Virus record (IMG/VR): IMGVR_UViG_3300033143_003883
Coordinates: 1-53,290 of that record
Length of the DNA stretch: 53,290 nucleotides
Source: a virus
Strand: one strand, 5' to 3'
The notes beneath the pieces were generated by a model. That model saw nothing but the letters and a program-made list of their open reading frames with translations, did not search any database and was not told the DNA's origin. The position numbers and the translations under genes are program-made. Positions 14,856-53,257 of the stretch are shown piece after piece (the stretch's first letter is position 1; each line of letters opens with the position of its first letter).

Positions 14856-16601
14856 ATGAATAAAAAATGGTTAGATTATGAAATTCAATTACTTAAAAAA
14901 CCTGAATTGACTATAAAAAAATTAATTACCATTTTAAAAAGAACAGAATCCAGTATTAGCAATAAATGTTGTAAATTAAAAATAAAAAAAGATAATAGAA
15001 TATTTTTTTCATCAAAAGAAATTAAAATTTTAAAAAATTCAAAATTAAGTTTTCAAAAATTAAATTGTATTCTAAAAAAAGATATAGAAAGCATTAAAAG
15101 AAAATGCTGGCAATTAAAAATAAAAAGAGAAAAAGAAAGTACTTGGACAAATGATGAAATAAAATTAATTAAAAATGAATTACAGAAAAATAATATATTA
15201 GATTATGACAAGCTTATGATGTTAACTGGAAGAAGCAAATCAAGCCTTAAACATAAATTATCAAGATTAAATTTAACTAATAAATATCCCAATAAAGATG
15301 CATGGAAATCTGAAGAAATTAAACTACTTAAAAATACCAATCTAAGTTTTAAAGATATATCTAAAATAACTGGGAGAACTGTCAAAGCTATTGGAACACG
15401 TTGTGAAAAATTAAGTATTATTAGAAATCCTCGCTGGACTAAAGAAGAAGAAAAAATATTATATAATTTAAATCTTAGTTGCAAAAATTTATCAAAAATA
15501 TTAGGAAAACGGCATGAAACAATTCAAGCTAAAAGACAGCAATTAAACATCAAAAGAGGGCAATATGTTAAATATCCATATAATGATTTTTTTAAATCAG
15601 CCACAAAAACTTCAATGTACGCATTAGGCTTGTGGTGGGCAGATGGGTATATAGATAAACATAGATTTGCTATATCATCATCAAACTATGAACATCTATT
15701 TCAAGTTAAAAATATTATAGGCGTAAAAAGTCCTATTCCAAAAACTTCTTCTAATGGATTTCAATATATAATAGGTCAAAAAGAAATTGTCAAAGATATA
15801 CAAGAAATTTGGGGAGGTAAACCAAATAAAAGTTTAACAGCAACACCACCTAAAAATTTTTCAGAAATATTTTTTTATGATTTTCTTACAGGATTTATAG
15901 ATGGAGATGGCTGGCTTATGATTAGTGGAGCAAGACATTATCCAGATATTGGATGGATTGGCACTAAAGAAATGATGAATTGGATTATAACATTTTTAGG
16001 AAAGCCTACTTATATCAGACAGCATAAAAATGGTCATAATACTTGGTATGTTCATTATCGTGGAGAAAAAGCACAAGAAATAGCAAAAAAATTATATCTT
16101 GATAATCCTCAGCCATATCATATGCAAAGAAAATATAAAATGGCTAAAAAATTAATGCAATGGAAAAGAAAAAGACTACCAAGAAAAAATTACACTTCTA
16201 AAGAAATTTCTTTATTGTATGACACATCATTATCATACAAAATTTTATCTAAAAAATTGAATAGATCTATAAAATCAATAGGCTATAAATGTCAACAATT
16301 AAATATAAAAAGAGATAATCATTGGTCTTTTGAAGAGATTCAATTTATTTCTGACGTTACATTATCCTACAAACAATTATCTCAAAAACTTAATAGATCT
16401 ATTAATTCATTAAGAACAAAATGTTATGCTTTAGATATAAAAAGAAACTTAAGACGTCGTTGGTCTTCTGAAGAGATTCAATTATTATACGATATATCGA
16501 TTTCATATTATCAATTATCTCAAAAACTTAATAGATCTATTAATTCATTAAAAACAAAATGTAGCAAACTTAAAATTAAACGATTAATTCTTAATCAATA
16601 A
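14856..16601 (+). CDS. LAGLIDADG homing endonuclease flanked by eight Myb/SANT-like repeats
   Basis: This 581-residue protein has a LAGLIDADG core at about 245-430, with motif 1 YALGLWWADGYID (255-267, D263) and motif 2 FLTGFIDGDGWL (343-354, D351). Around the core are repeats of about 45 residues with consensus W(S/T)xEEIxLL...L(S)...LSxxLNRS..S...KC..L.IKR: five before (about 4-46, 49-93, 97-145, 149-191, 193-236) and three after (444-487, 489-532, 535-577). Each looks like a Myb/SANT-type helix-turn-helix. The core would cut DNA and the arrays would add sequence reading. It is a free-standing gene wedged between spike and baseplate genes; removing it leaves AAAGGATTAAGGAGAATTAA, a normal stop/ribosome-site junction. 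Confidence 0.85.
   Translation: MNKKWLDYEIQLLKKPELTIKKLITILKRTESSISNKCCKLKIKKDNRIFFSSKEIKILKNSKLSFQKLNCILKKDIESIKRKCWQLKIKREKESTWTNDEIKLIKNELQKNNILDYDKLMMLTGRSKSSLKHKLSRLNLTNKYPNKDAWKSEEIKLLKNTNLSFKDISKITGRTVKAIGTRCEKLSIIRNPRWTKEEEKILYNLNLSCKNLSKILGKRHETIQAKRQQLNIKRGQYVKYPYNDFFKSATKTSMYALGLWWADGYIDKHRFAISSSNYEHLFQVKNIIGVKSPIPKTSSNGFQYIIGQKEIVKDIQEIWGGKPNKSLTATPPKNFSEIFFYDFLTGFIDGDGWLMISGARHYPDIGWIGTKEMMNWIITFLGKPTYIRQHKNGHNTWYVHYRGEKAQEIAKKLYLDNPQPYHMQRKYKMAKKLMQWKRKRLPRKNYTSKEISLLYDTSLSYKILSKKLNRSIKSIGYKCQQLNIKRDNHWSFEEIQFISDVTLSYKQLSQKLNRSINSLRTKCYALDIKRNLRRRWSSEEIQLLYDISISYYQLSQKLNRSINSLKTKCSKLKIKRLILNQ
16374..16550 (+). repeat. Direct repeat inside the homing endonuclease array
   Basis: A 39-base segment at 16374-16412 recurs exactly at 16512-16550, offset 138 bases (46 codons, one protein repeat). 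The GAAGAGATTCAATT segment just upstream is also repeated. This shows that the last two Myb-like repeats arose by recent tandem duplication. Confidence 0.9.
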
Positions 16602-24433: not shown

Positions 24434-24705
24434 CTGAAGAAATAAAAACAAGTAAAAATAAAACTAGATTAAATTTTTTATATAATACAAAAAATAATAA
24501 ATATTATTTTGATGTTATAGATGGATTTTATGGTCAATTATCACGAGATGCTAAAACTTATGGACCTTATGATACAAAAGAAAAAGCGGAAAAAGCTTTG
24601 ATTCGCATTGTAGGTAAGGATTATAATAAGAATAATGTTGATGATTCAGGCACAATATCGGTTCCAAAAAAAAGTCCTAATGGTACGCCTATTGGAAAGC
24701 CATAA
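24418..24705 (+). pseudogene. Leader-cassette gene 7, beheaded by fusion to cassette 6
   Basis: The frame encodes GIIKIAEEIKTSKNKTRLNF and continues for 95 codons to TAA at 24703-24705, but has no start: a stop lies at 24412-24414 in this frame. The first ten residues are the tail of the family leader, so the initiating half (MLSDE) was lost where cassette 6 was joined. The body has a DVIDGFYGQLSRDAKTYGPY segment then a Lys/Pro/Gly end (ISVPKKSPNGTPIGKP). It overlaps the end of cassette 6 by 16 bases; a -1 ribosomal slip could in principle rescue it. Confidence 0.6.
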
Positions 24706-27409: not shown

Positions 27410-28912
27410 ATGAAACAATTAATTAAAACATATAATATAAAATTATATAATAATTTACCATTTAAACAAACAATGGAATTGATTAAAAAAGAAGAAAATC
27501 AATTACTTAAATTTTGTTTTAATGATGAAACATTAAAATTATTTAATGATATGGGAATAAAACAATCAAGTAGAATTTTAGCCAATCATATTGTAAGAAA
27601 TACTTTTTTTCCTTCTAGAATATGGAGAGGAATATTAGATACAATTGGCGAAGTTCTTATTTCATTAAATAATAAAAATAATTTATATAAATTTTTAATA
27701 AATCTTAATGATAATCCAGAAAATTGGAATTACAAATTATGTAAAGATAATGGGAAACAATTTATTAAATTAAATTATATTATTATGTTAAAAGAACAAG
27801 CAATGAATTATTTAAAAAATAATAATTCACTTCCTGAATCTTATTTAAAAATGATTAAAATTCCACAATTTAAAAATGCAAAATTATCTTATGCGCCTGA
27901 TGATAATAATGCTATTCGATATGAAATAGCAGAAAATAAGTTAACTGGAGGAATTAAATTATATGATGGAAAAAAATGGAAGTGGTATAATTTAAATTTA
28001 AAATTACCTGTAAAATTAATTAATAAAAAATTTAGAAAACCTAATTTAAGACAAACAAATAATTCTTTTTATTTAGATATTAAATTTGAAGAAATTATAC
28101 AAGAATATAAAGAAACTAACAATATAATTTCTATAGATTGGGGCATCAGAAAGCTATTAACTATTGGAATCTTTGATAGAAATTTAAATCTTTTAACAGT
28201 TCCTAAATTTGTTAAATTTCAAGACATTCATAATAAACTTTATAGAATAAGACTTGACATAGATCACATAAAATCTAAAATAGATAGATTAAAAAATAAG
28301 AAAATAATAAATCATAAAAAAATATATTTTTTAAAAGTTTTAAATAAACAAAGATGGAACAAATTTAATAATCTGCAAAAAGAATTGTCTCATCTTGCCT
28401 CTAATATTATAATAAATTTGTCTAAGATATATGGAGTTTCAGATATTTATATAGAAGATTTATCTAATTTAAAATCACAAACTTATAATAAAAAATGTAA
28501 CTGGAAAATTAATTCAACTGTTAGATCTCAAATTTTTGATAAATTAAAATATAAATGTAAGGAATTTGGTTTTAAATTACATAAAATTAAACCCTATTTT
28601 ACCTCTCAAACATGTCCTAAATCTGGAGCTAAAGGATTAAGATATAAGGATTCAACATGTAAAAAACAAATTAAAGGAGGAGGATTTTTTAAATCTTCTC
28701 ATTATAAAGGAGATAGCGATTTTATTGCTATCCAGAATATAGCAAGAAGAAGTTTAGATTCTTTTAATTTGAATTCTTCAAAACCAACCAAGTATATCTT
28801 GAACGGTATTCCTACTAAACTATTAGAGCAGGGAAGAATTCATTTCAATAGAATTCAGAAACATCTTTTTTCATGGAACTTTCAAGTGAAAGTTAATCCA
28901 TTAAAGTGTTAA
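27410..28912 (+). CDS. tnpB: TnpB-like RNA-guided nuclease
   Basis: A 500-residue TnpB homologue with the split RuvC: IISIDWGIRKLLTIGIFD (D243), VSDIYIEDLSNLK (E349) and GDSDFIAIQNIARR (D437), so all three catalytic acids are present. The zinc-finger region between motifs II and III is altered: TSQTCPKSGAKG keeps one Cys but has Ser where the second is usual, with a lone STCKKQ later. It sits as a free-standing gene between two tail fibre genes, with no TnpA nearby. It has no clear ribosome site. TnpB elements use an RNA from their 3' end as a guide; a 3' hairpin lies at 28877-28894. Confidence 0.85.
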   Translation: MKQLIKTYNIKLYNNLPFKQTMELIKKEENQLLKFCFNDETLKLFNDMGIKQSSRILANHIVRNTFFPSRIWRGILDTIGEVLISLNNKNNLYKFLINLNDNPENWNYKLCKDNGKQFIKLNYIIMLKEQAMNYLKNNNSLPESYLKMIKIPQFKNAKLSYAPDDNNAIRYEIAENKLTGGIKLYDGKKWKWYNLNLKLPVKLINKKFRKPNLRQTNNSFYLDIKFEEIIQEYKETNNIISIDWGIRKLLTIGIFDRNLNLLTVPKFVKFQDIHNKLYRIRLDIDHIKSKIDRLKNKKIINHKKIYFLKVLNKQRWNKFNNLQKELSHLASNIIINLSKIYGVSDIYIEDLSNLKSQTYNKKCNWKINSTVRSQIFDKLKYKCKEFGFKLHKIKPYFTSQTCPKSGAKGLRYKDSTCKKQIKGGGFFKSSHYKGDSDFIAIQNIARRSLDSFNLNSSKPTKYILNGIPTKLLEQGRIHFNRIQKHLFSWNFQVKVNPLKC

Positions 28913-31109: not shown

Positions 31110-33374
31110 ATGATACATAAAATTATTGTAGATCATATATATTCACGAATTGAAGGTGAACTTGACGCAAGTTTATCTCGAAAATTATATAAACTATGTG
31201 CCTTTCATCCTAAAGGATATCAATTTATGCCTTCATATAGACAGATGATATATGAACATGATAAAGAAGGTAACATTATTAGAGAATATAGAGCCTGGGA
31301 CGGATATATATCATTTTTTAGAAAAGATTCACAAGTTTTTCACACCGGATTTTTAAAACATGCCTTAACATTATTCAAAGACGAAAAAATCAAATATAAG
31401 GTTATAGACAATAGAAAATTCCCCTCTGTAAGCTCCAAAATTAGCCTTAGATTGAACGATAATGAAAAAGGGCACATACAACTACGTGATTATCAAATAA
31501 AGGCTTTAAAACGAGCTTTAAAGCAACATAGGGGTATTATAAAAGCAGCGACTGGATGTTTAGCAGGAGATACTGAAATACGATATAATAGAAATAAAGT
31601 AGGAAGAGCAGTAACTATAAAAAGATTTTATGAAGCATTTAATCAAATAAAACGAGGATATGATTTAAGTAAACCAACTTATGTACGTTCATATAATGGA
31701 AAAACTGTTAATTTATATGAAATGCAGAATGTAATTTATAGCGGAATACAAGATGTTTATCAACTTATATTAGAAGATAATCATTCTATTAAAACAACAA
31801 AAAATCATCAATTTTTAACAAATCAAGGCTGGAAAGAATTACAAGATTTAACACAAGATGATTATATATTATGTGATACACTAAAACCACAAAAAAAAGT
31901 TAATAAATATAAAAAAAGAAAAAAGAAACAAGTATGGAATTTATGGTATCATCCTTATGCGATTAAAATAAAAATGAGCCATAAAAAATCAAAACCATAT
32001 ACAAAACGAATAGAATTACATAGAGCCATATATGAAGCGCATATTAATAATATAACACTTGATCAATATAAATATATATTAAGAACTGATGAACAAAAAA
32101 GTAAAACATTAAAATTTATTAATCCTAAATTATATGATATACATCATAAAGATGGCAACCATAATAATAATTTGATTCAAAATTTAATTGCTTTAGATAA
32201 AATTAAACATCAAAGAATTCATTCAAAAACAAATAAATTTAATTTTCATCAAGGTGTAATTAAAAAAGTAAAAATTAGATCAATTCAATATATTGGAAAA
32301 GAAGACACTTATGATATTCAATGTAAATATTTTCCTAATTTTATAGCTAATAATATGATAGTTCATAATTCTGGAAAAACGGAGATAGCTGCAAGTATTA
32401 TAAAAAATCTTGATCAACCAACATTATACTTTGTTCATCAACAAACTTTAGCCTTACAAACAAAAGAAAGATTTGAAGAAAGATTAGGATGTAAAATTGG
32501 ATTAATAGGTATTGGCAAATTTCAGCCAGAAAAAATAAGCATAGCAATGATTGAAACATTTTGGGCGCAAAAACATACTGCTAGAATAAAAAAATTAATG
32601 AAAGAAGCTAAAATATTAATGGTCGACGAATGTCATCATCTCAGAGCACAAACTTGGAGTAAATTAGCTAATAAAATAAAAGCACCTTATAGATATGGAT
32701 TAAGTGCAACACCAAATATAAAAGGAGAGGGTAAAAAATTAATTGCTGTTACTGGAGATTTATTAATAGATATTAGTAGTAATAAATTAATTAAAAAAGG
32801 CTATTTAGCAAAACCATTGATTAAAATATATAAATTTAAATGTGATGAAATTGATGGGGATTATCAAACAGTGCGTCAAGAAGGAATAGTTTATAATTAT
32901 ACAAGAAATGAAGGATTAATAAATGCTCTTGATAGATATATTAAGAAAAAAAAGAGTATATTAATATTAATTACCGAAATAGAACATGGACAAATCTTAT
33001 CCGATATGATTATAGAAAAATATGAAGATATTAAAATTGAATACTTGTATGGTAAAGATTCTGCTAATAAAAGAAAAAAAATTATAGAAAAATTTAAAAA
33101 AAAGGAAATAGATATATTAATAGGCTCAGTAATTTTTGATGAAGGAGTGGATATACCATCATTAGAAATTTTAGAATTAGCAAATGGATATAAATCTCGA
33201 AGAATGAATACACAAAGAGTTGGGAGAAGTTTAAGACGCACAAAAGATAAAGACAAAGTTATCATAATTGATGTTTATGACGATCATAATAAATATTTAT
33301 TAAAACATTCTAAAGAAAGAATTAAAAATTATAAGAAAAATAAATTTAAAATAAAAATGATTAAAAGGAAATAA
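31110..33374 (+). CDS. UvsW-like SF2 DNA helicase interrupted by an intein in its P-loop
   Basis: The 754-residue precursor yields a helicase of about 483 residues after removal of residues 150-420. Host motifs: Q-motif region HIQLRDYQIKALKRAL (122-137), Walker A split as AATG (146-149) and SGKTE (421-425), DECH box MVDECHH (504-510), SATP (532-535) and motif VI QRVGRSLRR (702-710). The N-terminal 100 residues resemble the small UvsW domain. UvsW-type enzymes unwind and rewind branched DNA and R-loops, switching T4-like replication to recombination-dependent mode. The start is nearly leaderless behind the promoter at 31072. Confidence 0.85.
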   Translation: MIHKIIVDHIYSRIEGELDASLSRKLYKLCAFHPKGYQFMPSYRQMIYEHDKEGNIIREYRAWDGYISFFRKDSQVFHTGFLKHALTLFKDEKIKYKVIDNRKFPSVSSKISLRLNDNEKGHIQLRDYQIKALKRALKQHRGIIKAATGCLAGDTEIRYNRNKVGRAVTIKRFYEAFNQIKRGYDLSKPTYVRSYNGKTVNLYEMQNVIYSGIQDVYQLILEDNHSIKTTKNHQFLTNQGWKELQDLTQDDYILCDTLKPQKKVNKYKKRKKKQVWNLWYHPYAIKIKMSHKKSKPYTKRIELHRAIYEAHINNITLDQYKYILRTDEQKSKTLKFINPKLYDIHHKDGNHNNNLIQNLIALDKIKHQRIHSKTNKFNFHQGVIKKVKIRSIQYIGKEDTYDIQCKYFPNFIANNMIVHNSGKTEIAASIIKNLDQPTLYFVHQQTLALQTKERFEERLGCKIGLIGIGKFQPEKISIAMIETFWAQKHTARIKKLMKEAKILMVDECHHLRAQTWSKLANKIKAPYRYGLSATPNIKGEGKKLIAVTGDLLIDISSNKLIKKGYLAKPLIKIYKFKCDEIDGDYQTVRQEGIVYNYTRNEGLINALDRYIKKKKSILILITEIEHGQILSDMIIEKYEDIKIEYLYGKDSANKRKKIIEKFKKKEIDILIGSVIFDEGVDIPSLEILELANGYKSRRMNTQRVGRSLRRTKDKDKVIIIDVYDDHNKYLLKHSKERIKNYKKNKFKIKMIKRK
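31557..32369 (+). other. HNH-containing intein within the helicase Walker A motif
   Basis: 271 residues from C150 to N420. Block A CLAGDTEIRYN, block B TTKNHQFLT (T230-x-x-H233), block F EDTYDIQCKYFPNFIANNM, and the terminal VHN followed by Ser as first extein residue: all residues for self-splicing are present. Between them lies an HNH-type homing motif, YDIHHKDGNHNNN...NLIALDKIKHQRIH (342-371). It interrupts the ATP-binding loop between TG and SGKT, so the helicase can be active only after splicing. Confidence 0.9.
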
Positions 33375-33378
33375 TATT

Positions 33379-33801
33379 ATGTCAATATCATTATTAAAAG
33401 ATTTTATAAATGAAAAATATAATATTGAATCAGATCTATTATCACAAGAAGAATTAAATAATATTTTAAAACAAGAATGTAAATCATTAAAAAATCCTTT
33501 TGGTACAATAGAGGGAGAATATATAAAAGTTGTATCAAAAGTATCACAAGATGATGCTAATGGAATTAAAGCTTATGATAAATTAAAAAGAAAATTATTA
33601 GAAGATATACCAATAGAATTATTTGAAAGTTTTCATATATATACACCAGAAGAAATAGTTGATTCATTTATTAAACAATTTATTGAAAAAAAACAATATG
33701 GTAATTATGCTCAATGTCTTAATAAATATTGTTATGTCTTAATCTCCATTATTGGATCATGGCAAGTTTCAAAAACAAATGATATATTTAAAAAAGCATA
33801 A
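33379..33801 (+). CDS. Hypothetical protein (140 aa)
   Basis: I do not recognise this protein. It is 140 residues, helical, with LLKDFINEKYNIESDLLSQE at the start and a C-terminal helical segment (YAQCLNKYCYVLISIIGSWQ). No membrane helix is convincing. AAAAGGA precedes the ATG, 4 bases after the helicase stop, so it shares that transcript. It directly precedes the candidate replication initiator. Confidence 0.6.
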   Translation: MSISLLKDFINEKYNIESDLLSQEELNNILKQECKSLKNPFGTIEGEYIKVVSKVSQDDANGIKAYDKLKRKLLEDIPIELFESFHIYTPEEIVDSFIKQFIEKKQYGNYAQCLNKYCYVLISIIGSWQVSKTNDIFKKA

Positions 33802-33804
33802 ATT

Positions 33805-35070
33805 ATGAAACGAAAAAACAAAAGAATTAAAAAAATTAAAGTAAAACAAACATCAGATGAATATATAAAATATCCACATTGTTTAAATAGTCATCCTTTG
33901 GATAAAGATTGTTCATGTGATTTTAATGGTGCTTGTAGAGGCAACACTATACAAGAAGAAATTGAATTTGGAAATAAAAAAATTCAAAAAAAAGATGATA
34001 ATTGTTTTGGAAATTATATAAAATCAGAACTACAATATCAAAAAATTAATTGTAAAAAATGCAAAGAAAAAGAAAGCTGTATATCACAATCTGTATTAAA
34101 TGAAAACTTTAAAAGTCAAGAACGTAAAAAAAATTTTTTTTGTGGAAAAAATGTATTTATCGAAAATAATATTGCCAGAATTCCATGGGTGGATAGTAAT
34201 ATAATTAGATTTAGTCAAAACAAAGTATTAAATAAATTACTTTATACATGTATTCATATAGAAGATCAAATAAAAATAAAAGTATATGAACTTATTGAAA
34301 ATACTTTATATATACAAAAAATACCAAATTGTAGATTACCATTGACAAAAGATATTTTATTGCTTTCTTATATATTTGAAGAAATGTATAAAAATAATAA
34401 TAATACTTTTTCAATTAATGAATTAGCTTCTATTTATCAAAATAAAAAAAAATTAGCAGGTAAATCTTATAAAACAATTAAAAAAACATTAAAATGGGCA
34501 TGTAAAACAAAATTTATTGCTAAAAAATCTTTTTTTATAAATAATAAACCAAGCAATAATACAAATAATAAACCAAGCAATAATACAAATAATAAACAAT
34601 TAATATGTTTCAGCTTATTAAATAAATTCAAAATATATAAATATTTATCTAAAACAATTATTAAAATATATCCAAATAAAGACTGGATAAATAGCATAAT
34701 ATTAGAAAATATTAAAAATACAGCTAATGGAAATTATATACCAGTATCATATTTTAAAAATAATATAAAAAGTAATTTTGCTTATACTGTAAAATTTATT
34801 AATTCTTATTATTGGGGGCTTGAAAATTTAAAAAAAAGAATATTTCCATTAAAATATGTAGAATTAAAAAAATTAAATAAAATAAAAAATGATATTACTT
34901 TATCAATATCAGCAAAAAATAAAATCGTAAAAAAAATTTATAAACGGCAAGATCAAATGAACAAAAAAATTTTATATTTAATTAATCAATATGAAAATAT
35001 TTATTACGAATTAGATAAAGAATCATTAATTAAAAATAATTTTCATATGACAAAATTATTAATTAAATGA
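33805..35070 (+). CDS. Candidate replication initiator (Rep-like) upstream of iterons
   Basis: A 421-residue protein encoded just before an iteron array. The N-terminal 110 residues are Cys-rich (CLNSHPLDKDCSCDFNGAC, CKKCKEKESC), suggesting a metal-binding domain. About 170-250 resemble a winged helix (LTKDILLLSYIFEEMYKNNN, FSINELASIYQNKKKLAGKS, YKTIKKTLKWACK), as in plasmid Rep proteins. A short internal repeat NNKPSNNT (DNA near 34540-34600) makes a flexible linker to a second lysine-rich helical part. Gene-plus-iteron order is the main argument for Rep; I see no catalytic motif. It has no clear ribosome site and begins 3 bases after the previous stop. Confidence 0.5.
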   Translation: MKRKNKRIKKIKVKQTSDEYIKYPHCLNSHPLDKDCSCDFNGACRGNTIQEEIEFGNKKIQKKDDNCFGNYIKSELQYQKINCKKCKEKESCISQSVLNENFKSQERKKNFFCGKNVFIENNIARIPWVDSNIIRFSQNKVLNKLLYTCIHIEDQIKIKVYELIENTLYIQKIPNCRLPLTKDILLLSYIFEEMYKNNNNTFSINELASIYQNKKKLAGKSYKTIKKTLKWACKTKFIAKKSFFINNKPSNNTNNKPSNNTNNKQLICFSLLNKFKIYKYLSKTIIKIYPNKDWINSIILENIKNTANGNYIPVSYFKNNIKSNFAYTVKFINSYYWGLENLKKRIFPLKYVELKKLNKIKNDITLSISAKNKIVKKIYKRQDQMNKKILYLINQYENIYYELDKESLIKNNFHMTKLLIK

Positions 35071-35110
35071 AAATTTATAACTTTTATTATAAAATATATT
35101 AATAATTTTT

Positions 35111-35218
35111 GCGTACCACTAGGCGTGATTTGGCGTACCACAAGGAGTAGTTGCGTACCACTAGGCGTGATTTGGCGTACCGCTAGGAGTGATTTGGCGT
35201 ACCGCTAGGAGTGATCTG
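35111..35218 (+). repeat. Iteron array: five tandem 20-22 bp repeats (probable replication origin)
   Basis: Five head-to-tail copies without spacers: 35111-35132, 35133-35152, 35153-35174, 35175-35196 and 35197-35218. Consensus GCGTACC(A/G)CTAGG(A/C)GTGATTTG; copies 1 and 3 are identical, the second is 20 bp and most divergent. They are about half G+C in a region that is about four-fifths A+T. This is the form of plasmid iterons bound by Rep proteins, with AT-rich DNA on the 3' side that could melt. Confidence 0.85.
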
Positions 35219-35432
35219 TCTTGTAGCTTCTTGAATATAAAAGACTTATTTTTCTAAAGGATTTAAAGGATTTAAATACATTAAATAGAAATAATTTCTA
35301 TATTTAATATCTCAACTCTCTCAGCAAAAAAAATTTTGCTTCGAGAGTTTCTTCCTCAAAAAAAACTTGAGGAAGAAAATTAAGTTTGAATTTTAACATT
35401 TGTAAGATTTTCATTAAAGTAAAAATAAATTT
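35219..35432. other. AT-rich intergenic part of the putative origin
   Basis: 214 bases without a gene, following the iterons. It contains a tandem AAAGGATTTAAAGGATTTAAA, a palindrome ATAGAAATAATTTCTAT, two hairpins (annotated separately) and no clear promoter. It is a plausible DNA-unwinding region beside the iterons. Confidence 0.5.
35314..35377 (+). terminator. Two adjacent hairpins (possible bidirectional terminators)
   Basis: Hairpin 1 pairs AACTCTC (35314-35320) with GAGAGTT (35343-35349) and also GCAAAA with TTTTGC inside. Hairpin 2 pairs TTCTTCCTCAA (35349-35359) with TTGAGGAAGAA (35367-35377), 11 bp. Both are A/T flanked and could terminate transcripts leaving the Rep gene or entering the origin. 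Confidence 0.55.
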
Positions 35433-35978
35433 ATGAAATCAGAAAACATGAAACCAAAACCAGAATTTAGAAAAATAGAAAAGAAATATAGACAACAAAG
35501 ACTTTTTTTTACTTCTACTGAAAATCAAGCTTTTCTTTTAGGTTTAAGATATAATAGATATAGAATTACTTCTTCTCATCATCGAGATTATACAGTTTTT
35601 AAACATGAAATTTTAAAAGATGATCCTAATTTTAAAAGTTTAGTTTCTGTTGTCAAAAAATTAAATCAGAATCATATTTATATTACCTATAAACATTGTT
35701 TTTGGGAAAGTTATTTACAATTTTGTTTTCAATATGCTCAAAAATATTTTTCAGGTAAAACTAAATATCCACCAATATTAATACTTAAATCTGATAAATT
35801 ATTAAAAGCATTTGAGAAATATCGTGCTAAATTTGCAGTCGACGACCTTGAAGAAGTTGATTTAAAAAATGATAAAGAATTTGAAGAATTTAATAAAAAA
35901 TATTATGATAATTTAAGAAAGAATTTATCTAGTGCTGGTTTTTCTAAAGAAGAAATAAAACAAATGTTAAATGACTAA
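35433..35978 (+). CDS. Hypothetical protein next to origin (181 aa)
   Basis: I do not recognise a family. The basic N-terminal half (RKIEKKYRQQRLFFTSTENQ, RYNRYRITSSHHRDYTVFKH) is rich in Arg, Tyr and His and could bind nucleic acid. The C-terminal 50 residues are acidic and helical (ENDL-type, DDLEEVDLKNDKEFEEF). The weak ribosome site and position next to the origin suggest a replication accessory role, which is inference only. Confidence 0.5.
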   Translation: MKSENMKPKPEFRKIEKKYRQQRLFFTSTENQAFLLGLRYNRYRITSSHHRDYTVFKHEILKDDPNFKSLVSVVKKLNQNHIYITYKHCFWESYLQFCFQYAQKYFSGKTKYPPILILKSDKLLKAFEKYRAKFAVDDLEEVDLKNDKEFEEFNKKYYDNLRKNLSSAGFSKEEIKQMLND

Positions 35979-36000
35979 AAAGGCAAAAAATAAAAAATAA

Positions 36001-36030
36001 TTGACAAATAAATTATTTTTCTGATATAAT
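36001..36030 (+). promoter_or_regulatory. Promoter (TTGACA-18-TATAAT) for the replicative helicase
   Basis: A consensus -35 TTGACA (36001-36006) and perfect -10 TATAAT (36025-36030) preceded by TCTGA. A ribosome site AGAGG and the ATG at 36050 follow, so this promoter gives a normal leader of about 13 bases. Confidence 0.9.
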
Positions 36031-36049
36031 ACTTATCAAGAGGATTTAA

Positions 36050-37348
36050 ATGGATAAATTAAAATGTGATTTTAATCGTGATTTTCAAGAAGGAATTCTG
36101 CATTTTTTTCTAATAGATAAAAAGTTTGCTGATTTTTTTGTTTATAAATTAACTCCAGATTATTTTAGCGCAGACCTTGCATCATTATCTTTTAGATTTA
36201 TTAAAAAATTTTATGATATTTATCATAAAATAGAATATAAAAATATTCTAAATGAAGTTGGTATTGATAAAAGATTATCTAATGATAAAAAGAAAGAATT
36301 AAAAAAATATTTAAAAAAGACGTATAAAAAAAGTACTAATTATAAATATATATTAGATAATACTACTCAATTTATTAAATCTCGTGTCTATTTTGAAACT
36401 TTAGATGAATGTTATGAATCAGTAGAAGATGGAAATTTTGTTAATGTAATAAATAAAATTAATAATTTAAGTCGAATGGAATTTCAAATAGATGAAGGCT
36501 TGGAAACTTCTGCTAAAACATATAAGAATACTTTATTAGAAATTAATGATAGAGAAAGAAATAATGTTAATTATTTATCAACTGGTATTACTCCTTTAGA
36601 TCATTATATAAAAGGTTTACGTAATGGTGAACTTGGAGTAATAGCAGCACCACCGTCAGGTGGTAAATCATTTTTCTTACTTCATATTGCTAAATATGCT
36701 TTATATTTTAATTTAAATGTTTTATATTACACATTAGAGCAAAATCAAGATTTGATAACTAGAAGAATAATGATGAGTATAAGCAATATGACTTCTAAAG
36801 ATACTATTGAAAAAGAAAAATTAGCATTAAAAAACTTAAAGAGATTAAAAAAAAATGGAGGAAGATTTATAGTAAAACATTTTCCAAAGAAAAAAACTGT
36901 AGCTGATTTAAGACTTTATACAAATTATTTAATAAATAAAGGTTTCGTGCCAGATGTTGTATTAGTAGATTATGCTGATTATTTAAAAAGTGTTGAACGT
37001 ATTAAAGAGAAGAGACATGAACTGACAGATATATTTTATGATTTATATTCTTATGCTGAAGATTATGATGTTCCTTTATGGACTGCATCAGGAACTACCA
37101 AAGAAGCTTCAAAAAAACAAGTAGTAGCAATGGAAGATATGAAAGAAACATATGAAAAAGCTTATATCGCTGATATAGTTTTAGGTATATGTCAGACAGT
37201 AGATGAATGTAAAGAAGATAATGATGGCTATACTAGGGCAAGAATATATATTGCAAAAAATAGGAATAGAGGTAATAAAGGAAAAATAATAGAGATAGTA
37301 CAAGATGAAAAAAGAATGCAATTTTATAAGCCAAATGTGAAATATTAA
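36050..37348 (+). CDS. DnaB-like replicative DNA helicase
   Basis: A 432-residue RecA-fold helicase. Walker A VIAAPPSGGKSFFL (about 198-210), the preceding STGITPLDHYIKGLRNGELG (the usual DnaB 'GipsGfxxLDxxxxGlxxGel' segment) and Walker B VVLVDYADYL near 305 identify it. The N-terminal 150 residues are a divergent helical domain. It would encircle and unwind the lagging strand template in partnership with the primase encoded at 38052. The conserved arginine-finger region seems to be TRARIYIAKNRNRGNKGKII. It is the first gene behind a strong promoter and is followed by Thg1-like and primase genes with short gaps. Confidence 0.85.
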   Translation: MDKLKCDFNRDFQEGILHFFLIDKKFADFFVYKLTPDYFSADLASLSFRFIKKFYDIYHKIEYKNILNEVGIDKRLSNDKKKELKKYLKKTYKKSTNYKYILDNTTQFIKSRVYFETLDECYESVEDGNFVNVINKINNLSRMEFQIDEGLETSAKTYKNTLLEINDRERNNVNYLSTGITPLDHYIKGLRNGELGVIAAPPSGGKSFFLLHIAKYALYFNLNVLYYTLEQNQDLITRRIMMSISNMTSKDTIEKEKLALKNLKRLKKNGGRFIVKHFPKKKTVADLRLYTNYLINKGFVPDVVLVDYADYLKSVERIKEKRHELTDIFYDLYSYAEDYDVPLWTASGTTKEASKKQVVAMEDMKETYEKAYIADIVLGICQTVDECKEDNDGYTRARIYIAKNRNRGNKGKIIEIVQDEKRMQFYKPNVKY

Positions 37349-37366
37349 GAAAAGGAACAATAAATT

Positions 37367-38050
37367 ATGTCAGAACATTTAAATATCGGCAAAAGAATGA
37401 AAACATATGAAAGATGTGCAGAATTTATCTTGCCAAAAAGAATACCTGTTATCGTTAGAATTGATGGTCGAGCATTTCACACAATAACAAGAAAAAGATT
37501 TGGAAAAAATTGGAATATTGAATTTGTAGAACAAATGATAGAAGTAGCAAAAACAGTAGCTAAAGATATGTCTTGTAAATTTTGTTATTCACAATCTGAT
37601 GAAATTAGTTTTCTTTTAACAGATTATCGAACCATACATTCTCAAGGATTTTTTAATTATGATATTAGAAAGATAATATCAATATCTGCTTCTCTTGCTT
37701 CTTCAGTGTTTACCAGATTACATGGACGTAATGTTTGCTTTGATAGTAGATGTTTTTCGCTTCCTCAAGATGAAGTCTGTAATTATTTTCTTTGGAGACA
37801 ATTAGATGCAACTAGAAATGCAATTCAAATGGCAGGAAGAGAATATTTTTCTCATAAGCAATTGCATAAGAAAACTTGTAATGATATACAAGAAATATTA
37901 TTTCAAGAATATGGAATTAATTTTAATGATTATCCTGTTATTCGTAAAAGAGGATTTTGTATAGTTAATGGAGAATTAGATAAAGAAATACCTTTATTTA
38001 ATAAAGATAGAGAATATATTAAAAAGCATGTTTATATAAGAGAAGATTAA
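37367..38050 (+). CDS. Thg1-like tRNA 3'-5' nucleotidyltransferase
   Basis: A 227-residue protein with the hallmarks of tRNAHis guanylyltransferase: VIVRIDGRAFHTIT (metal-binding D33), CYSQSDEISFLLTDY (D78/E79), and CFDSRCFSLPQDEVCNYFLW with RQLDATRNAIQ, the canonical C-terminal part of the catalytic core. Thg1-like proteins add nucleotides in the 3'-5' direction to tRNA 5' ends, either as G-1 of tRNAHis or as repair of damaged tRNAs. A phage copy may counter host tRNA cleavage. Its location between helicase and primase instead of a tRNA cluster is unusual. No tRNA gene is seen nearby. Confidence 0.9.
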   Translation: MSEHLNIGKRMKTYERCAEFILPKRIPVIVRIDGRAFHTITRKRFGKNWNIEFVEQMIEVAKTVAKDMSCKFCYSQSDEISFLLTDYRTIHSQGFFNYDIRKIISISASLASSVFTRLHGRNVCFDSRCFSLPQDEVCNYFLWRQLDATRNAIQMAGREYFSHKQLHKKTCNDIQEILFQEYGINFNDYPVIRKRGFCIVNGELDKEIPLFNKDREYIKKHVYIRED

Positions 38051-38051
38051 T

Positions 38052-39008
38052 ATGAAAAATAAATTAAAAAAGATTATAGATAAATTTGATATTATTAATT
38101 ATTTAAGTTCTAAATTTGATACTAAGCCTGGCAAACATGATCAAATAAGAGTATTATGCCCGCTATGTGCTGAAATTATTGGAGAACCTGATACAAATTA
38201 TCATCTTGAATTTAATATTAGTACAAAAGTATGGCATTGCTTTAGATGTAATTCTTCTGGAACTCTTTTTGATTTTATAAAATTATCAGAAAAAGTTTCT
38301 TTTGTAGAAGCTGTTAATATAGTTAAATATAGTGAAAATTATCACTTATCAAAAGAAGATGCTAAAAATAAAGTTATAGAAAAACTTGAGAAAAAAATTA
38401 AATTTATAGGATTACCAAAAGTATATATGCCGATAAATTATGATAAAAATCTTCCCAATATGGTAAAAAAATATTTACAAAAAAGAAAATTAGATATTGA
38501 TACATGCATAGAATATAAAATAGGTTATTGCCAATATGGTGATTATATGCATAGATTAATAGTGCCAATTATATTTAATAATAAAATTGCAACTTTTATA
38601 GCAAGAGCAATGATAAAGTCAAAGAAAAAGAAGTTATATCCTGTAGGTTCAACTACTGGTAAAATTTTATTTAATTGGGATGTTGCAAAACAAAAAAAAG
38701 ATTTAGTTATTTGTGAAGGAGTTTTTGACGCTATTAGAATTGGAGAAAGTGCTGTGGCATTGCTTGGATCTTCGATGTCTGAAGATCAATTAAAATTAAT
38801 AAGAAATGAACAATTTAATAATGTTTATGTTTGTTTAGATAAAGATGCTATTAAAAAAACAAAATCAATATTTTCTAAATTAGCAAGTTATTTTGATACT
38901 TATATAGTACGTATGCCTACTATTAAAAAAGATCCTGCTGATTACACAAGACAACAAATTTGGGATATAATTTATACAAGATCAAAAAATTTTTTTAGTA
39001 ATCATTAA
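38052..39008 (+). CDS. DnaG-type primase
   Basis: A 318-residue primase. An N-terminal zinc ribbon is formed by C36/C39 (VLCPLC) and C63/C66 (WHCFRC), followed by the usual GTLFDFIKL segment. The TOPRIM catalytic core has LVICEGVFDAIRI (E222), a LLGSSMS turn and YVCLDKDA (D263/D265). It would lay down RNA primers for Okazaki fragments in association with the helicase encoded at 36050. It is smaller than bacterial DnaG because it lacks the C-terminal helicase-binding domain, as in many phage primases. Starts 1 base after the Thg1-like stop. Confidence 0.9.
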   Translation: MKNKLKKIIDKFDIINYLSSKFDTKPGKHDQIRVLCPLCAEIIGEPDTNYHLEFNISTKVWHCFRCNSSGTLFDFIKLSEKVSFVEAVNIVKYSENYHLSKEDAKNKVIEKLEKKIKFIGLPKVYMPINYDKNLPNMVKKYLQKRKLDIDTCIEYKIGYCQYGDYMHRLIVPIIFNNKIATFIARAMIKSKKKKLYPVGSTTGKILFNWDVAKQKKDLVICEGVFDAIRIGESAVALLGSSMSEDQLKLIRNEQFNNVYVCLDKDAIKKTKSIFSKLASYFDTYIVRMPTIKKDPADYTRQQIWDIIYTRSKNFFSNH

Positions 39009-39033
39009 CATTTCTTAAATTTTATCGTATAAT
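39005..39033 (+). promoter_or_regulatory. Promoter (TTAACA-17-TATAAT)
   Basis: TTAACA 39005-39010, TATAAT 39028-39033, spacer 17 with ATCG before the -10; overlaps the end of the primase gene. It almost duplicates the promoter at 30639 and drives the gene at 39057. Confidence 0.85.
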
Positions 39034-39056
39034 ATAATAAGGAGAAATAATTTTAA

Positions 39057-39953
39057 ATGTTAAAAAAGAAGAAAGCAATGCTTGAAGAAAAAGTTGATGT
39101 GAAAAAGAAGAGAAAGAAGAAAAAAAATAAGAAAGAAAAGATTGAGCCATTAGTTTCTAAGACTAAGAAAAAACGAAAAAAGAGAAAAAAGAAATCATTA
39201 ACATCTAAACAAATATCTAAATTAAAGAGAAAAGAACTTAGAGAAAAAACAAAAAAACTTAAGATATTAAAAAAATATTTTGAACAGCATAGAAAAGTAT
39301 TAAATAAATTAGATTATACAATTTGGTGCAATAAATGTTCATTTCGTCTTATAATGGGCGTTTGTTTATATAGAAAATTAAATATATCAGATATTATTAA
39401 TTATAGATATTGTAATAAATGTACCGTATATATTAGTAATTATATAAAAGTTTTAGACTTTATAGATAAAAATGAAAAATCATTTATGGATTTATGTATT
39501 AATAATAAAGTTGAATTAACAGATATTAATATATATGTCGAAAGATGGCATAATAGTTATGAAGGAATTCAATCTTTATCATCTTATTTGGGCATGACTT
39601 GGAAAGAATATGATGTGTGGATTAAGAAACCAAAATTATTAGAATTCATTATTAATTTAAGAAAAGAAGGTAAATCAGATCAAATATTAAGTATATTGAG
39701 AAAAGAGAAAGAACAACGAAAGCAAAAGAGATTGATGAAAAAGAAAAAAAAGAAGAAAACTAAGAAAAAAGTTATATTAGAAGAAAAAGTTGATGTGAAG
39801 AAAAAAAAGAAGAAAACTAAGAAAAAGAAAAAAAAGAAGAAAACTAAGAAAAAAGTTATATTAGAAGAAAAAGTTGATGTGAAGAAAAAAAAGAAGAAAA
39901 CTAAGAAAAAGAAAAAAAGAAGAAGAAAAAATGATAAAAGTTGTTCATTGTAA
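39057..39953 (+). CDS. Lysine-rich protein with poly-Lys arms and a Cys4 zinc ribbon-like centre
   Basis: A 298-residue protein. Residues about 1-75 and 225-298 are made almost only of Lys/Arg with scattered Thr and Glu (runs such as KKKKKKTKKKKKKKKTKKK). The middle (about 85-200) has two C-x-x-C pairs, WCNKCSF and YCNKCTV, a likely zinc ribbon, and a tryptophan/tyrosine-rich helical segment with GMTWKEYDVW. I do not recognise a family. The arms must bind nucleic acid or acidic partners; the 76-Asp tail of the SSB encoded at 46266 is an obvious candidate. The last 23 bases overlap the next gene. Confidence 0.6.
   Translation: MLKKKKAMLEEKVDVKKKRKKKKNKKEKIEPLVSKTKKKRKKRKKKSLTSKQISKLKRKELREKTKKLKILKKYFEQHRKVLNKLDYTIWCNKCSFRLIMGVCLYRKLNISDIINYRYCNKCTVYISNYIKVLDFIDKNEKSFMDLCINNKVELTDINIYVERWHNSYEGIQSLSSYLGMTWKEYDVWIKKPKLLEFIINLRKEGKSDQILSILRKEKEQRKQKRLMKKKKKKKTKKKVILEEKVDVKKKKKKTKKKKKKKKTKKKVILEEKVDVKKKKKKTKKKKKRRRKNDKSCSL
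39741..39917 (+). repeat. Tandem 84-bp repeat coding the C-terminal poly-Lys arm
   Basis: An 84-base unit (28 codons, containing VILEEKVDVKKKK) is repeated almost exactly, for example GTTATATTAG at 39771 and 39855. The EEKVDVKKK block also occurs once near the N-terminus at about 39088, so the protein ends grew by duplication. Confidence 0.85.
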
Positions 39954-41892: not shown

Positions 41893-43110
41893 ATGATTCA
41901 TTTACATAATCATTCTGTATTTAGTTTTTTAGATAGTATTGTTAAAATTGATGATTATATTGAAAAGACCAAGGAGTTAGGAGTAAAATATTTATCATTA
42001 ACAGATCATGGTAATTTATGTGGAATATTTGAATTATATAAAAAGTGTAAAAAAAATAACATTACTCCTATAATTGGATGTGAGTTTTATTACAGTGAAG
42101 GTGAAAAGGTTAGAGCTAAAGATCATCTTGTTGTAATTGCAAAAAATAATGAAGGTCTTAGAAATTTATTTGAATTATCTTCTAAATCATATTTAACAGG
42201 ATTTTATTATAGACCTACAATTCATTTTAAAGATTTATTAACATATAGAAAAGGATTAATAATATCAACAGCATGTATTGGAGGAACTATTCCAAAATTT
42301 TTATTAAATAATCAATTTGATGATGCTTATAATCATGCTAAAAAATTTATGGAAAATTTTGAAGATTTTTATTTAGAGATGCAGTTGCATAATGTTCAAA
42401 AACAAGTTATCGTTAATAATGGCATTGCTAGAATTAGTCACAAATTAGGAATTCCATTAGTTATGACTAATGATGTACATTATATTGATAAACGTGATAA
42501 TGCTATACAAGATTTTGTTTCTATGATAAGAATGAACAGAACTATAAAAAATCATGTTTATAATGATTTTCGTGATTTATATTTTAAAACTGATGATGAT
42601 TTATATAATAATTTTAAAAATATGAAAAAAGCAATGAATGGTGTTGGCAAAATTGATTTTTCACAATCTATGGAGAATACATATAAAATAGCAGAAATGA
42701 TTAAAAAAGGAAATATTAAAATTGATCAATCTTTGAAATTACCTAAAATAGATATTAAAAATAGCAAAAAAGAATTAAAATCTATAGTTGAAACTAATTT
42801 TAAAAATAAAATTGACAATAATATTATTGGTAAAGATCAGATTATACAATATCGTGAGCGAATTGAAACAGAATATGATGTAATATTTTCAAAAAGTTTT
42901 CAAGATTATTTTTTAGTCATAGAAGATATAATTAAATATTGTAACAATAATGATATTTATGTTGGAATTGGTAGAGGTAGTGCTGGTGGAAGTTTAGTGG
43001 CATATTTGCTTGGAATAACACAGCTTGACCCTATTAAATATGGTTTAAAATTTGAAAGATTCATAACTAAGAAAAGAAGTAAATTACAAATGATTTTAGA
43101 TATGGAGTAG
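41893..43110 (+). CDS. dnaE: DNA polymerase III alpha subunit (DnaE), N-terminal half
   Basis: A 405-residue protein with a PHP domain: MIHLHNHSVF (H3/H5), LSLTDHGNLCG (36-44), GCEFYYSEG and TNDVHYI (191-198), then the start of the palm: EDIIKYCNNNDIYVGIGRGS (GRGS 360-363), AGGSLVAYLLGITQLDPIKY and GLKFERF. It ends about where the catalytic PDID motif would follow, at a TAG. The second half is the next gene, in the same frame two codons later. The two proteins must associate to make an active family C polymerase. The start has AAAGGA. Confidence 0.88.
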   Translation: MIHLHNHSVFSFLDSIVKIDDYIEKTKELGVKYLSLTDHGNLCGIFELYKKCKKNNITPIIGCEFYYSEGEKVRAKDHLVVIAKNNEGLRNLFELSSKSYLTGFYYRPTIHFKDLLTYRKGLIISTACIGGTIPKFLLNNQFDDAYNHAKKFMENFEDFYLEMQLHNVQKQVIVNNGIARISHKLGIPLVMTNDVHYIDKRDNAIQDFVSMIRMNRTIKNHVYNDFRDLYFKTDDDLYNNFKNMKKAMNGVGKIDFSQSMENTYKIAEMIKKGNIKIDQSLKLPKIDIKNSKKELKSIVETNFKNKIDNNIIGKDQIIQYRERIETEYDVIFSKSFQDYFLVIEDIIKYCNNNDIYVGIGRGSAGGSLVAYLLGITQLDPIKYGLKFERFITKKRSKLQMILDME

Positions 43111-43113
43111 TTT

Positions 43114-45723
43114 ATGTTAACTAAAAAATCATTAAAAAATATTTGTATTAAAAGATTGAAAAAAAGAAACTTATATAATAAAGTTTACATTAATATTTTA
43201 AAAAAAGAGCTAAAAGCTATTCATAAGCAAGATTATTATAAATATTTTAATAAATTAATAAAAAATAAAATAAAATTTGATCAAAATAAAAATGGTTTAT
43301 TGATAGCATATTTATTAAATTTAACTAAAGTTAATCCTATTGAAGATAAAATTAAACATAAATTTTTATTGCATGGTGATTATCCAGATATCGATCAAGA
43401 TATAGAAGATATTAGACGTGATGATGTTAAACAATATCTTGCTAATAAATATGGAAAAAATAATATTAGCAATATTATATCTTTTACTAGATTGAGAGTT
43501 AAATCATTATTGCATGATTTGGCAAGAATTTATGGAATATCTAATGAAGTAATTCCAATATCTAAAATTATTAAAACTAATGAAACATATGAACAAGCGT
43601 GTGAAAAATATAAAGAATTACAAGATTTTAAAAATAAAATGCAGAATGGGAGTAAACAAGATAAATTATTTTTTAGAGCATTGGAAAAATTAGATGGAGC
43701 ATATAGACACTATGCAACACATGCTTCTGGTTTTGTAATATCACCTATAAGATTGTCCAGCGTTTTGCCGTTAATGAAACGTGCTGGTCAAGATATTATA
43801 TTAACAGGATGGTGTGAAGGTCAAGATGCTGAAGAAAAACGTGAATTAACAGATATAGGATTAATTAAATTTGATTTATTAGGTTTATCATCATTAACTA
43901 TTGTACATCAAGCTGTTAGATTTATTAAAGAAATAAATCATGATTTTAAATTAGTTTTTGAACAATTAGATTTAACAGATAAAAAAGTTTTAGATGCATT
44001 TAAAAAGGCAAGATCTATAGCAACATTTCAATTTGAATCTCCAGGAATTAGAAAATTTCTTAAAAAAATGCAGCCAGATCGTTTTGAAGATTTAATAGCA
44101 GCAAATGCTTTATATCGTCCAGGTCCTATTGAGTCTGGAATGTTAGATATATTTATAGAAAATAAAAAAAATCCTGATAAAATACAATATATAGATAATA
44201 GACTTGAGCCAATTTTACATGAGACTTATGGGTGTCTAGTTTATCAAGAACAAATAATGGAAATTTGTGCAGTTTTAGGAAATTATAGCCCAGAAGAAAC
44301 TAATGATATACGTAAATTATTAACTAAATTTATACAAAAAGGATCAGATCTACCAAAAAATATTATAAAAAAATTAGCAATACAGAAGAAAAAATTGATA
44401 AAACGTTTTATTGACAATGGTATTGAATCATCTAAGGCTGAGATTATACTTAAACAATTAATGGAATTTAATAAATATTCATTTAATAAATCTCATAGTG
44501 CTGTATATGCATCATTAGCATTCATATGTCAATATTTAAAAGTTTATTATCCACTTGAATATATGACTGCTTCTTTAATTTATGTGTCTAATGATTCTTA
44601 TTTAGAATCATATATTAAAGAATCTGTGCGATTAAAATTAAAATTTGCCGGTATAGATATTAATAAATCTAAATTTAATTTTTATACTGATCATGAGAAA
44701 ATATATATGGGATTTAATAAGATTTTTGGATGTGCAATAAAATCTGCAACAGTTTTACAAGATAATCAACCATATGATAATATTGATGATTTTATGCGAA
44801 AGATTAAGGGAAAACGTATTAATAAAACTATATTAAAAAGTTTATTTCAAGTTGGTGCTTTTAATCGTTTTTTTAATGATAGAATAAATAATGCCAAAGA
44901 TAAAAATGAAGAACAGATTATCAAACAGCAAATTAAGATTGAAATTATTAAAAAATTAAAAATTGAAGAAGAAAATATTTATGTATATGGTTTAGATAAT
45001 TATATAGATTTAAATATTTTACAAGATATTTTAAGAACTGATGAAAATTGTTTAAGACATATATATGGTGATAGTTATAAAAAATTTAATGATTTAGTTA
45101 GATTAAATGTTCATAAAGCTCAGTGTCAAAAATGTGATTTAAGTCAATTAAAGGAAAATATTAATAAAATTTCTATAGGAGATCGTCTTGAAAAGAAAAA
45201 ATCTATTGATATTATGATTATCAATGATACTCCTTATTGTAGGCGTATGGGAAATCGAGCTTCTTATGATTTACAGATATCTAAAATGATTAAAAAATTA
45301 GCGACCAAACATAATAAAAACGTATATTTCGTTAATGCGATTAGTTGTTCTGACAGATATTCTAAAAATTTTGAACCGCAAACGATGAATGGCTGTAAAG
45401 AATGGTTATTTAATGAGATTCTTATATTAAAACCTAAATTAATTATTACTATAGGAAAATTAACACGAGAATTATTTGGTGGAAATTATAATGATTTTCA
45501 TAAGTTGTTTTTGGGCAATAAAAATTGGAAAGTATATTGCACATATAATCCATATTATATATTACTTGATAATAAAAGAAAGCTGAAAGAAGATGAAGAA
45601 TATATTAAATCACTAAAAACAGAAGATAAGAAAGAGATTGATGCTTTAGTTTCAGAAGAAGCGGAGAAAAGAAAAAATACTTTTTTTAGAAAAAAAATAT
45701 TAAAATTATTAAAAAAAATTTAA
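43114..45723 (+). CDS. dnaE: DnaE C-terminal half fused to a family-4-like uracil-DNA glycosylase domain
   Basis: This 869-residue protein holds the rest of the polymerase. Catalytic PDIDQD at 91-96, YATHASGFVIS (200-210), IKFDLLGL (251-258, third Asp D254), NALYRPGP (331-338), VYQEQIMEI (376-384) and NKSHSAVYA (458-466). Residues 24-88 are a worn copy of the palm segment already present in the first half, lacking GRGS. From about 660, a UDG-like domain with cysteines C671, C674, C745 and C761 (4Fe-4S pattern) follows, but the catalytic GEAPG site reads NDTPYCRRMGN, so glycosylase activity is doubtful. It has its own GGAG site and ATG. Confidence 0.88.
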   Translation: MLTKKSLKNICIKRLKKRNLYNKVYINILKKELKAIHKQDYYKYFNKLIKNKIKFDQNKNGLLIAYLLNLTKVNPIEDKIKHKFLLHGDYPDIDQDIEDIRRDDVKQYLANKYGKNNISNIISFTRLRVKSLLHDLARIYGISNEVIPISKIIKTNETYEQACEKYKELQDFKNKMQNGSKQDKLFFRALEKLDGAYRHYATHASGFVISPIRLSSVLPLMKRAGQDIILTGWCEGQDAEEKRELTDIGLIKFDLLGLSSLTIVHQAVRFIKEINHDFKLVFEQLDLTDKKVLDAFKKARSIATFQFESPGIRKFLKKMQPDRFEDLIAANALYRPGPIESGMLDIFIENKKNPDKIQYIDNRLEPILHETYGCLVYQEQIMEICAVLGNYSPEETNDIRKLLTKFIQKGSDLPKNIIKKLAIQKKKLIKRFIDNGIESSKAEIILKQLMEFNKYSFNKSHSAVYASLAFICQYLKVYYPLEYMTASLIYVSNDSYLESYIKESVRLKLKFAGIDINKSKFNFYTDHEKIYMGFNKIFGCAIKSATVLQDNQPYDNIDDFMRKIKGKRINKTILKSLFQVGAFNRFFNDRINNAKDKNEEQIIKQQIKIEIIKKLKIEEENIYVYGLDNYIDLNILQDILRTDENCLRHIYGDSYKKFNDLVRLNVHKAQCQKCDLSQLKENINKISIGDRLEKKKSIDIMIINDTPYCRRMGNRASYDLQISKMIKKLATKHNKNVYFVNAISCSDRYSKNFEPQTMNGCKEWLFNEILILKPKLIITIGKLTRELFGGNYNDFHKLFLGNKNWKVYCTYNPYYILLDNKRKLKEDEEYIKSLKTEDKKEIDALVSEEAEKRKNTFFRKKILKLLKKI

Positions 45724-46265: not shown

Positions 46266-47306
<1,041 letters not shown>

Positions 47307-52560: not shown

Positions 52561-52737
52561 TGAATAACAAAATAATTAATATTGCAAAAGATTTTACATT
52601 AGAACCATCAGGCTTTGAACACGGAAAATATTTTAAAAGAAGCAATATTGATTCCATTACTTAAAAATAATTATATTGATGTTGAATTGGATCAATCATC
52701 CATATTTAAAAATATGGATCTAAATCGTGAGATTTAG
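52560..52737 (+). pseudogene. Broken STAS-like (DUF4325-type) gene, frameshifted and cut by an IscB element
   Basis: The ATG overlaps the SbcC stop. The first frame gives MNNKIINIAKDFTLEPSGFE and stops at 52662-52664. In the +1 frame the sequence continues ALNTENILKEAILIPLLKNN, then YIDVELDQSS. Joined, this reads like the N-terminal half of a DUF4325 STAS-like domain (I-AKDF--P-G, then a (R)EE-L-P-L helix and a V-(V/I)-(D/E)LD strand). The frame change is near 52611. The rest is missing: the structured RNA of the IscB element starts at about 52699. It appears as a remnant both shifted and interrupted. Confidence 0.5.
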
Positions 52738-53184: not shown

Positions 53185-53213
53185 TACATTCACTGAAAAC
53201 TATTAACAAATCT

Positions 53214-53252
53214 ATAAAAATGTTAACATTTAATTAATATTTTATTTAAATT
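53214..53252 (+). promoter_or_regulatory. Shared AT-rich upstream element, copy 3
   Basis: Matches the block at 1233-1269 and the reverse complement of 730-769 over about 36-38 bases. TTAACA at 53222-53227 followed 17 bases later by TTAAAT could be a promoter for the gene starting at 53258. Confidence 0.5.
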
Positions 53253-53257
53253 AAAAA

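What the first reader, a model, noticed from the sequence alone, without database searches (positions are those of the whole stretch)
33805..35432. Plasmid-type iteron origin with a Rep-like gene in a myovirus genome
Five tandem 20-22 bp repeats, much richer in GC than the genome around them, lie just downstream of a gene with a winged-helix-like region and a Cys-rich N-terminus. They are followed by AT-rich DNA with repeats and hairpins. Together these look like a self-contained theta-type origin. T4-like phages do not use such iterons; this one may have acquired a plasmid replicon or live in a plasmid state.
Basis: partly seen in the sequence, partly recalled or inferred. Interest (0 to 1): 0.78.

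Follow-up and report, generated by a model that had tools for sequence, protein, structure and literature searches.

The report
Probable repeat-based phage replication origin
In a large, AT-rich tailed phage, a short row of near-identical GC-rich repeats sits beside the most easily melted DNA in the sequenced piece, between an unknown gene and the gene for the phage's DNA-unwinding enzyme; this looks like a place where the virus starts copying its DNA, as phages such as lambda do, and there is no sign that it lives as a plasmid.

Summary
Five GC-rich tandem units (core GCGTACCRCWAGGMGT, start-to-start 22/20/22/22 bp) lie at 35109-35218, in the largest intergenic gap of the window, after a 421-codon gene with a Cys-rich N-terminus. 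An otherwise identical sibling contig (no mismatch outside the array over 39 kb) has ten units. The unit occurs nowhere else searched beyond chance.

The most easily melted 100 bp of the window (35010-35109) abuts the array upstream; the DNA downstream is ordinary apart from hairpins. And the phage is not T4-like: its tail resembles jumbo phages, while its replication module has Herelleviridae gene order, UvsW - X - DnaB. In Herelleviridae X is a winged-helix, replication-initiator-like protein; here the slot holds the 421-aa gene and the array. No homology of the 421-aa protein to those proteins, or to anything else, could be shown, and its winged helix is unproven.

Best reading: a lambda-like origin for the phage's own replication, with an orphan initiator (confidence about 0.5). 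A plasmid replicon or plasmid state is not supported: no partition, repressor, integrase or plasmid Rep match in the genes scanned. Rivals are an operator array or a neutral, unstable satellite. Related phages examined lack such an array in this slot.

The parts
33805..35070 (+). 421-aa ORFan, candidate initiator: 9 Cys in the first 113 aa, possible helical DNA-binding middle region (aa 182-234)
   Evidence: only relative is the sibling contig; no family; low-confidence models
35010..35109 (.). least stable 100-bp duplex in the window (candidate unwinding element); 35071-35108 contains one G/C in 38 bp
   Evidence: nearest-neighbour scan of all 100-bp windows, rank 1
35109..35218 (+). five tandem units, core GCGTACCRCWAGGMGT, starting at 35111, 35133, 35153, 35175, 35197
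   Evidence: ten units in the sibling L005
35255..35276 (.). short AT-rich direct repeat TAAAGGATT x2.4
35314..35349 (.). imperfect hairpin AACTCTC...GAGAGTT with inner GCAAAA/TTTTGC
   Evidence: fold; read from the sequence
35348..35378 (.). 12-bp perfect-stem hairpin (possible terminator or origin structure)
35433..35978 (+). 181-aa ORF of unknown function between array and dnaB
   Evidence: weak PHROG hits of unknown function; no phage relative
36001..36030 (+). consensus sigma-70 promoter TTGACA-18-TATAAT before dnaB, the only 12/12 match on the + strand of the window
36050..37348 (+). DnaB-type replicative helicase
   Evidence: PF03796 4.2e-24, phrog_19 4.8e-65
31110..33374 (+). UvsW-type helicase with intein, upstream edge of the replication slot
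33379..33801 (+). 140-aa ORF of unknown function in the same slot

Best explanation
The array and its upstream AT tract are an origin for the phage's own replication, working like the lambda origin. The 421-aa protein, encoded just upstream, binds the direct repeats, which lie about two helical turns apart, wraps or bends them, and melts the adjacent AT-rich 35010-35109 segment. DnaB, encoded 0.8 kb downstream, is loaded there and works with the phage primase and PolIII-alpha. Shown: array, melting-prone flank, gene order, different unit number in two contigs. Inferred: binding by the 421-aa protein, melting, helicase loading and origin activity.
For: Array far beyond chance, with a near-constant core and 20-22 bp phasing. 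It sits in the largest intergenic gap next to the least stable DNA of the window. Gene order UvsW - [slot] - DnaB matches SPO1, SBSphiC, LysYB1, Twillingate and Carl, whose slot proteins match initiator-type wHTH families (phrog_1098, 8102, 428, 270, 678; RepL for Twillingate); a UvsW - X - DnaB slot also exists in jumbo-phage relatives. Lambda has 4 and Stx phages 6 iterons flanked by an AT-rich region, so iteron number varies in nature (PMC7466680).
Against: The 421-aa protein has no detectable homology to any initiator, including the slot proteins (hhalign E about 0.5). Counterpart slots in Herelleviridae and jumbo relatives carry no comparable tandem array. GC skew shows no inflection at 35 kb. 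No DnaA-box match lies near the array; the closest is at 34141. No half-unit marks a promoter of the 421-aa gene.
Confidence: 0.5

Rival explanations
1. Operator array: a phage regulator (the 421-aa protein or another) binds the repeats to control transcription of the 181-aa and dnaB genes; the hairpins downstream act as a terminator or attenuator.
For: Array and hairpins lie in a co-directional intergenic gap 0.2 kb before the 181-aa gene; one distant core-like site exists at 24673(-), score 21.0 against a control 95% point of 17.4.
Against: No consensus promoter at or just after the array; the strong promoter is 0.8 kb away, directly before dnaB. The distant site lies in an apparent reading frame, and the best of 1000 permuted controls reaches 23.9.
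Confidence: 0.17
2. Neutral or selfish minisatellite: an unstable tandem repeat without function, expanded by slippage.
For: Unit number (5 or 10) is the only difference between two contigs identical over 39 kb; absent from all relatives examined and, beyond chance hits, from all databases searched.
Against: Core positions are nearly invariant while length changes fall only in the 4-7 bp tail; GC 0.54 in a 0.256 genome; position in the initiator slot next to the least stable DNA.
Confidence: 0.18
3. Plasmid replicon: the phage acquired a theta plasmid origin and can persist as an episome.
For: Resemblance of anatomy to iteron plasmids; phage-plasmids with a RepA-like protein exist (PMC7157519).
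Against: No plasmid Rep homology, no plasmid with the array, no partition, repressor or integrase family in the scanned genes, no DnaA-box match near the array. The window is only a fragment, so such genes could lie elsewhere.
Confidence: 0.07
4. Another DNA site made of tandem repeats, such as a partition centromere or a packaging or recombination site.
For: Tandem arrays are common in such sites (established knowledge).
Against: No partition gene next to it and no terminase among the genes identified in the window; the neighbours are replication genes.
Confidence: 0.08

Closest known systems
Lambda origin and O protein (and Stx phage origins with 6 iterons)
   Same: direct repeats bound by a phage initiator, flanked by an AT-rich tract, near helicase functions; natural variation in repeat number (PMC7466680)
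   Different: lambda iterons lie inside the O gene; here they lie in the gap after the 421-aa gene, and that protein has no detectable O homology
Herelleviridae UvsW - wHTH initiator-like - DnaB slot (SPO1 gp20.1; Twillingate_123; phrog_1098/14232)
   Same: gene order and position just before dnaB; related UvsW, DnaB and primase
   Different: no comparable tandem array there; no detectable homology of the 421-aa protein
Iteron theta plasmids (RepA/RepE type) and phage-plasmid P1
   Same: tandem direct repeats of about 20 bp beside AT-rich DNA and an adjacent gene
   Different: no Rep homology, no DnaA-box match near the array, no partition or copy-control features found
PLE satellite RepA_N origin in the ICP1 system
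   Same: repeats in a noncoding region needed for replication, in a phage context (PMC7145576)
   Different: PLE iterons are semi-palindromic units of about 30 bp on a satellite, with a RepA_N initiator (PMC8263062); neither was found here

Membership tests
Iteron-type theta origin | tandem direct repeats of about 17-22 bp | tested here: met
Iteron-type theta origin | adjacent AT-rich, easily melted DNA | tested here: met
   least stable 100 bp of the window abuts the array
Iteron-type theta origin | adjacent gene for a winged-helix Rep/initiator | tested here: inconclusive
   gene present, no family match, structure models unreliable
Iteron-type theta origin | DnaA box at the origin (many, not all, plasmids) | tested here: not met
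   no TTWTNCACA match within 900 bp of the array
Iteron-type theta origin | initiator binds repeats; DNA replicates autonomously | not testable with these tools
   needs experiment
Lambda O-type phage origin | iterons inside an O-family initiator gene | tested here: not met
   array lies downstream of the gene; no O-like PHROG match
Herelleviridae wHTH slot protein (phrog_1098/14232) | sequence homology of the slot protein | tested here: not met
   hhalign E 0.66 and no PHROG match; the position is met
Phage-plasmid | partition, repressor or plasmid Rep genes | tested here: inconclusive
   none in the window genes scanned, but the window is a fragment

The most novel reading that the evidence does not exclude
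A previously undescribed initiator family (421 aa, Cys-rich N-terminus) with its own GC-rich iterons has replaced the usual initiator in a Herelleviridae-like replication slot, and the number of iterons changes quickly between otherwise identical phages, tuning replication or evading attackers of the origin.
Probability: 0.12. Interest if true: 0.65.

Novelty: new variant of a known kind. Interest (0 to 1): 0.38.

Why it matters
To my knowledge, origins of large myoviruses outside the model phages are mostly unmapped. A compact candidate with a gene, repeats and a melting site close together makes the question testable, and would show that an iteron mechanism can sit in the replication slot used by Herelleviridae and jumbo-phage relatives. 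Variable unit number, if real, offers a natural experiment on what iteron number does.

Tried and rejected
Searched for the 421-aa protein in phage records, IMG/VR and GTDB genomes: only the sibling contig, and none in 49 records of phages with related tail sheaths (DnaB also failed to ring there, so that search is weak). Profile comparison of the 421-aa protein with Herelleviridae slot proteins, with a jumbo-phage family (L013, L014, L036, L092-L102) and with the Cys-rich slot proteins of megaphages: not significant, so positional analogy only. By eye parts of the C-terminal region looked alike; the statistics do not support it. Searched for the unit elsewhere: IMG/VR finds only the sibling, GTDB gives three isolated hits, about the chance number; the listed plasmid and phage matches are short and nearly all outside the array. 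RNA function of the array itself: it folds worse than its shuffles (z = +2.07), so not favoured. AlphaFold2 without relatives failed twice, so no fold search was run. A Cys motif CFG-x-C-x2-C-x5-C looked shared with other phage proteins, but a pattern search of the loci held then found only this protein and its copies. The second core-like site at 24673(-) is marginal. Tail-related contigs G002-G004, G012, G013 and G033 carry no intergenic arrays by the filter used, but none shows the UvsW/DnaB module, so they are no test.

Full report
1. What is there. The window is one IMG/VR record of 53,290 bp. In a simple ORF map all genes but one partial ORF at the left end are on the + strand. It carries a contractile-tail module (sheath whose best phage match is Tunturi_5 and then a 485-kb metagenomic phage; sheath initiator and baseplate J), then a replication module: UvsW with an intein, a 140-aa ORF, the 421-aa ORF, the array, a 181-aa ORF, DnaB, a tRNAHis guanylyltransferase, primase, a 5'-3' exonuclease, PolIII-alpha in two ORFs, a gp32-like SSB, RecA and SbcCD. 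It is therefore not T4-like in replication, although SSB is gp32-like.

2. The array. Five units lie at 35109-35218: GCGTACCACTAGGCGT+GATTTG, GCGTACCACAAGGAGT+AGTT, GCGTACCACTAGGCGT+GATTTG, GCGTACCGCTAGGAGT+GATTTG, GCGTACCGCTAGGAGT+GATCTG. The core varies at three positions; only the tail changes in length. Eight matches to the core pattern with up to three mismatches were found in the window, against 0.05 expected; five are the array. The array GC is 0.54 in a 0.256 background.

3. The sibling. IMGVR_UViG_3300033155_001954 (39,227 bp) matches window 1-39120 without a mismatch on either side of the array (0 in 1-35100 and 0 in 35221-39120), but holds ten units. Both contigs begin at the same base. 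They may be the same population or even overlapping data, and short-read assembly can collapse such arrays, so the length difference is an observation, not yet a biological fact.

4. The melting site. A nearest-neighbour stability scan puts the least stable 100 bp of the window at 35010-35109, directly against the first unit; 35071-35108 has one G/C in 38 bp. Downstream DNA is of average stability. Ends of genes and gaps are AT-rich in general here, so this coincidence is supportive, not decisive. The downstream part has real hairpins, which could be a terminator or an origin structure; this is undecided.

5. The slot. In Bacillus phage SBSphiC, SPO1 and Enterococcus phage Carl one gene lies between UvsW and DnaB; in Twillingate it is that gene plus a transposase, and in Lysinibacillus LysYB1 there are also three short ORFs. 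The slot product matches wHTH and replication-initiation families in the four that were scanned. Jumbo-phage-like loci L036, L014 and L013 have a different but mutually related protein just before DnaB (L013 has one more small ORF between), and seven large records have a Cys-rich 247-319 aa protein between their UvsW and DnaB positions. The 421-aa gene lies in this slot here. I could not show homology to any of these, so the initiator role is inferred from position and from the adjacent array.

6. Mechanism. Most likely: the 421-aa protein binds the phased repeats, the adjacent AT tract opens, and DnaB is loaded. This is how lambda O works, where four iterons (six in Stx phages) flank an AT-rich region (PMC7466680). 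Only the anatomy is shown here.

7. Plasmid state. Nothing found supports it: no Rep family, no partition, repressor or integrase family in the scanned genes, no plasmid with the array, no DnaA-box match near it. A number of small ORFs were not scanned and the genome is incomplete, so it is unlikely rather than excluded.

8. Against the origin reading: no homology for the protein, no comparable array in the counterpart slots examined, no GC-skew switch at 35 kb. A phage with recombination-dependent replication or several origins would also show no switch, so this last point is weak. Overall confidence 0.5.

Noticed in passing
window 52691-53290 (+): HEARO/OMEGA RNA (RF02033, 107.9 bits) preceding and overlapping an ORF with the RRXRR domain of IscB-like proteins (PF14239), near the window end: an IscB-like system in a large phage.
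   Followed up: no
window 27410-28912 (+) and 1-693 (-): Two TnpB-like ORFs (PF07282 and OrfB_IS605 for the first; weak OrfB_IS605 for the second). The second is cut at base 1, where the sibling contig also begins, so a repeated element may explain the shared contig end.
   Followed up: partly
window 18924, 20124, 20683, 24749, 28974 (+): Five small proteins share an N-terminal stretch like M-LSDEIIKIA; it may be a common targeting or capsid-packaging signal, as T4 internal proteins have (untested).
   Followed up: partly
window 46266-47306 (+): gp32-like SSB with a very long poly-Asp tail encoded by (GATGAC)n repeats.
   Followed up: no
window 41893-45723 (+): PolIII-alpha split into two adjacent ORFs, the second with a uracil-DNA-glycosylase-like domain towards its C-terminus.
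   Followed up: no
window 24673-24700 (-): Marginal core-like matches to the array unit in an apparent reading frame, also present in the sibling.
   Followed up: partly
window 14856-16601 (+): Protein with weak LAGLIDADG match and repeated HTH-like segments.
   Followed up: no
L227-L233 (large phage records), gene between UvsW and DnaB: Family of 247-319 aa proteins with a Cys-rich N-terminus and no convincing Pfam match in the four scanned; could be helicase loaders (my reading, untested).
   Followed up: partly
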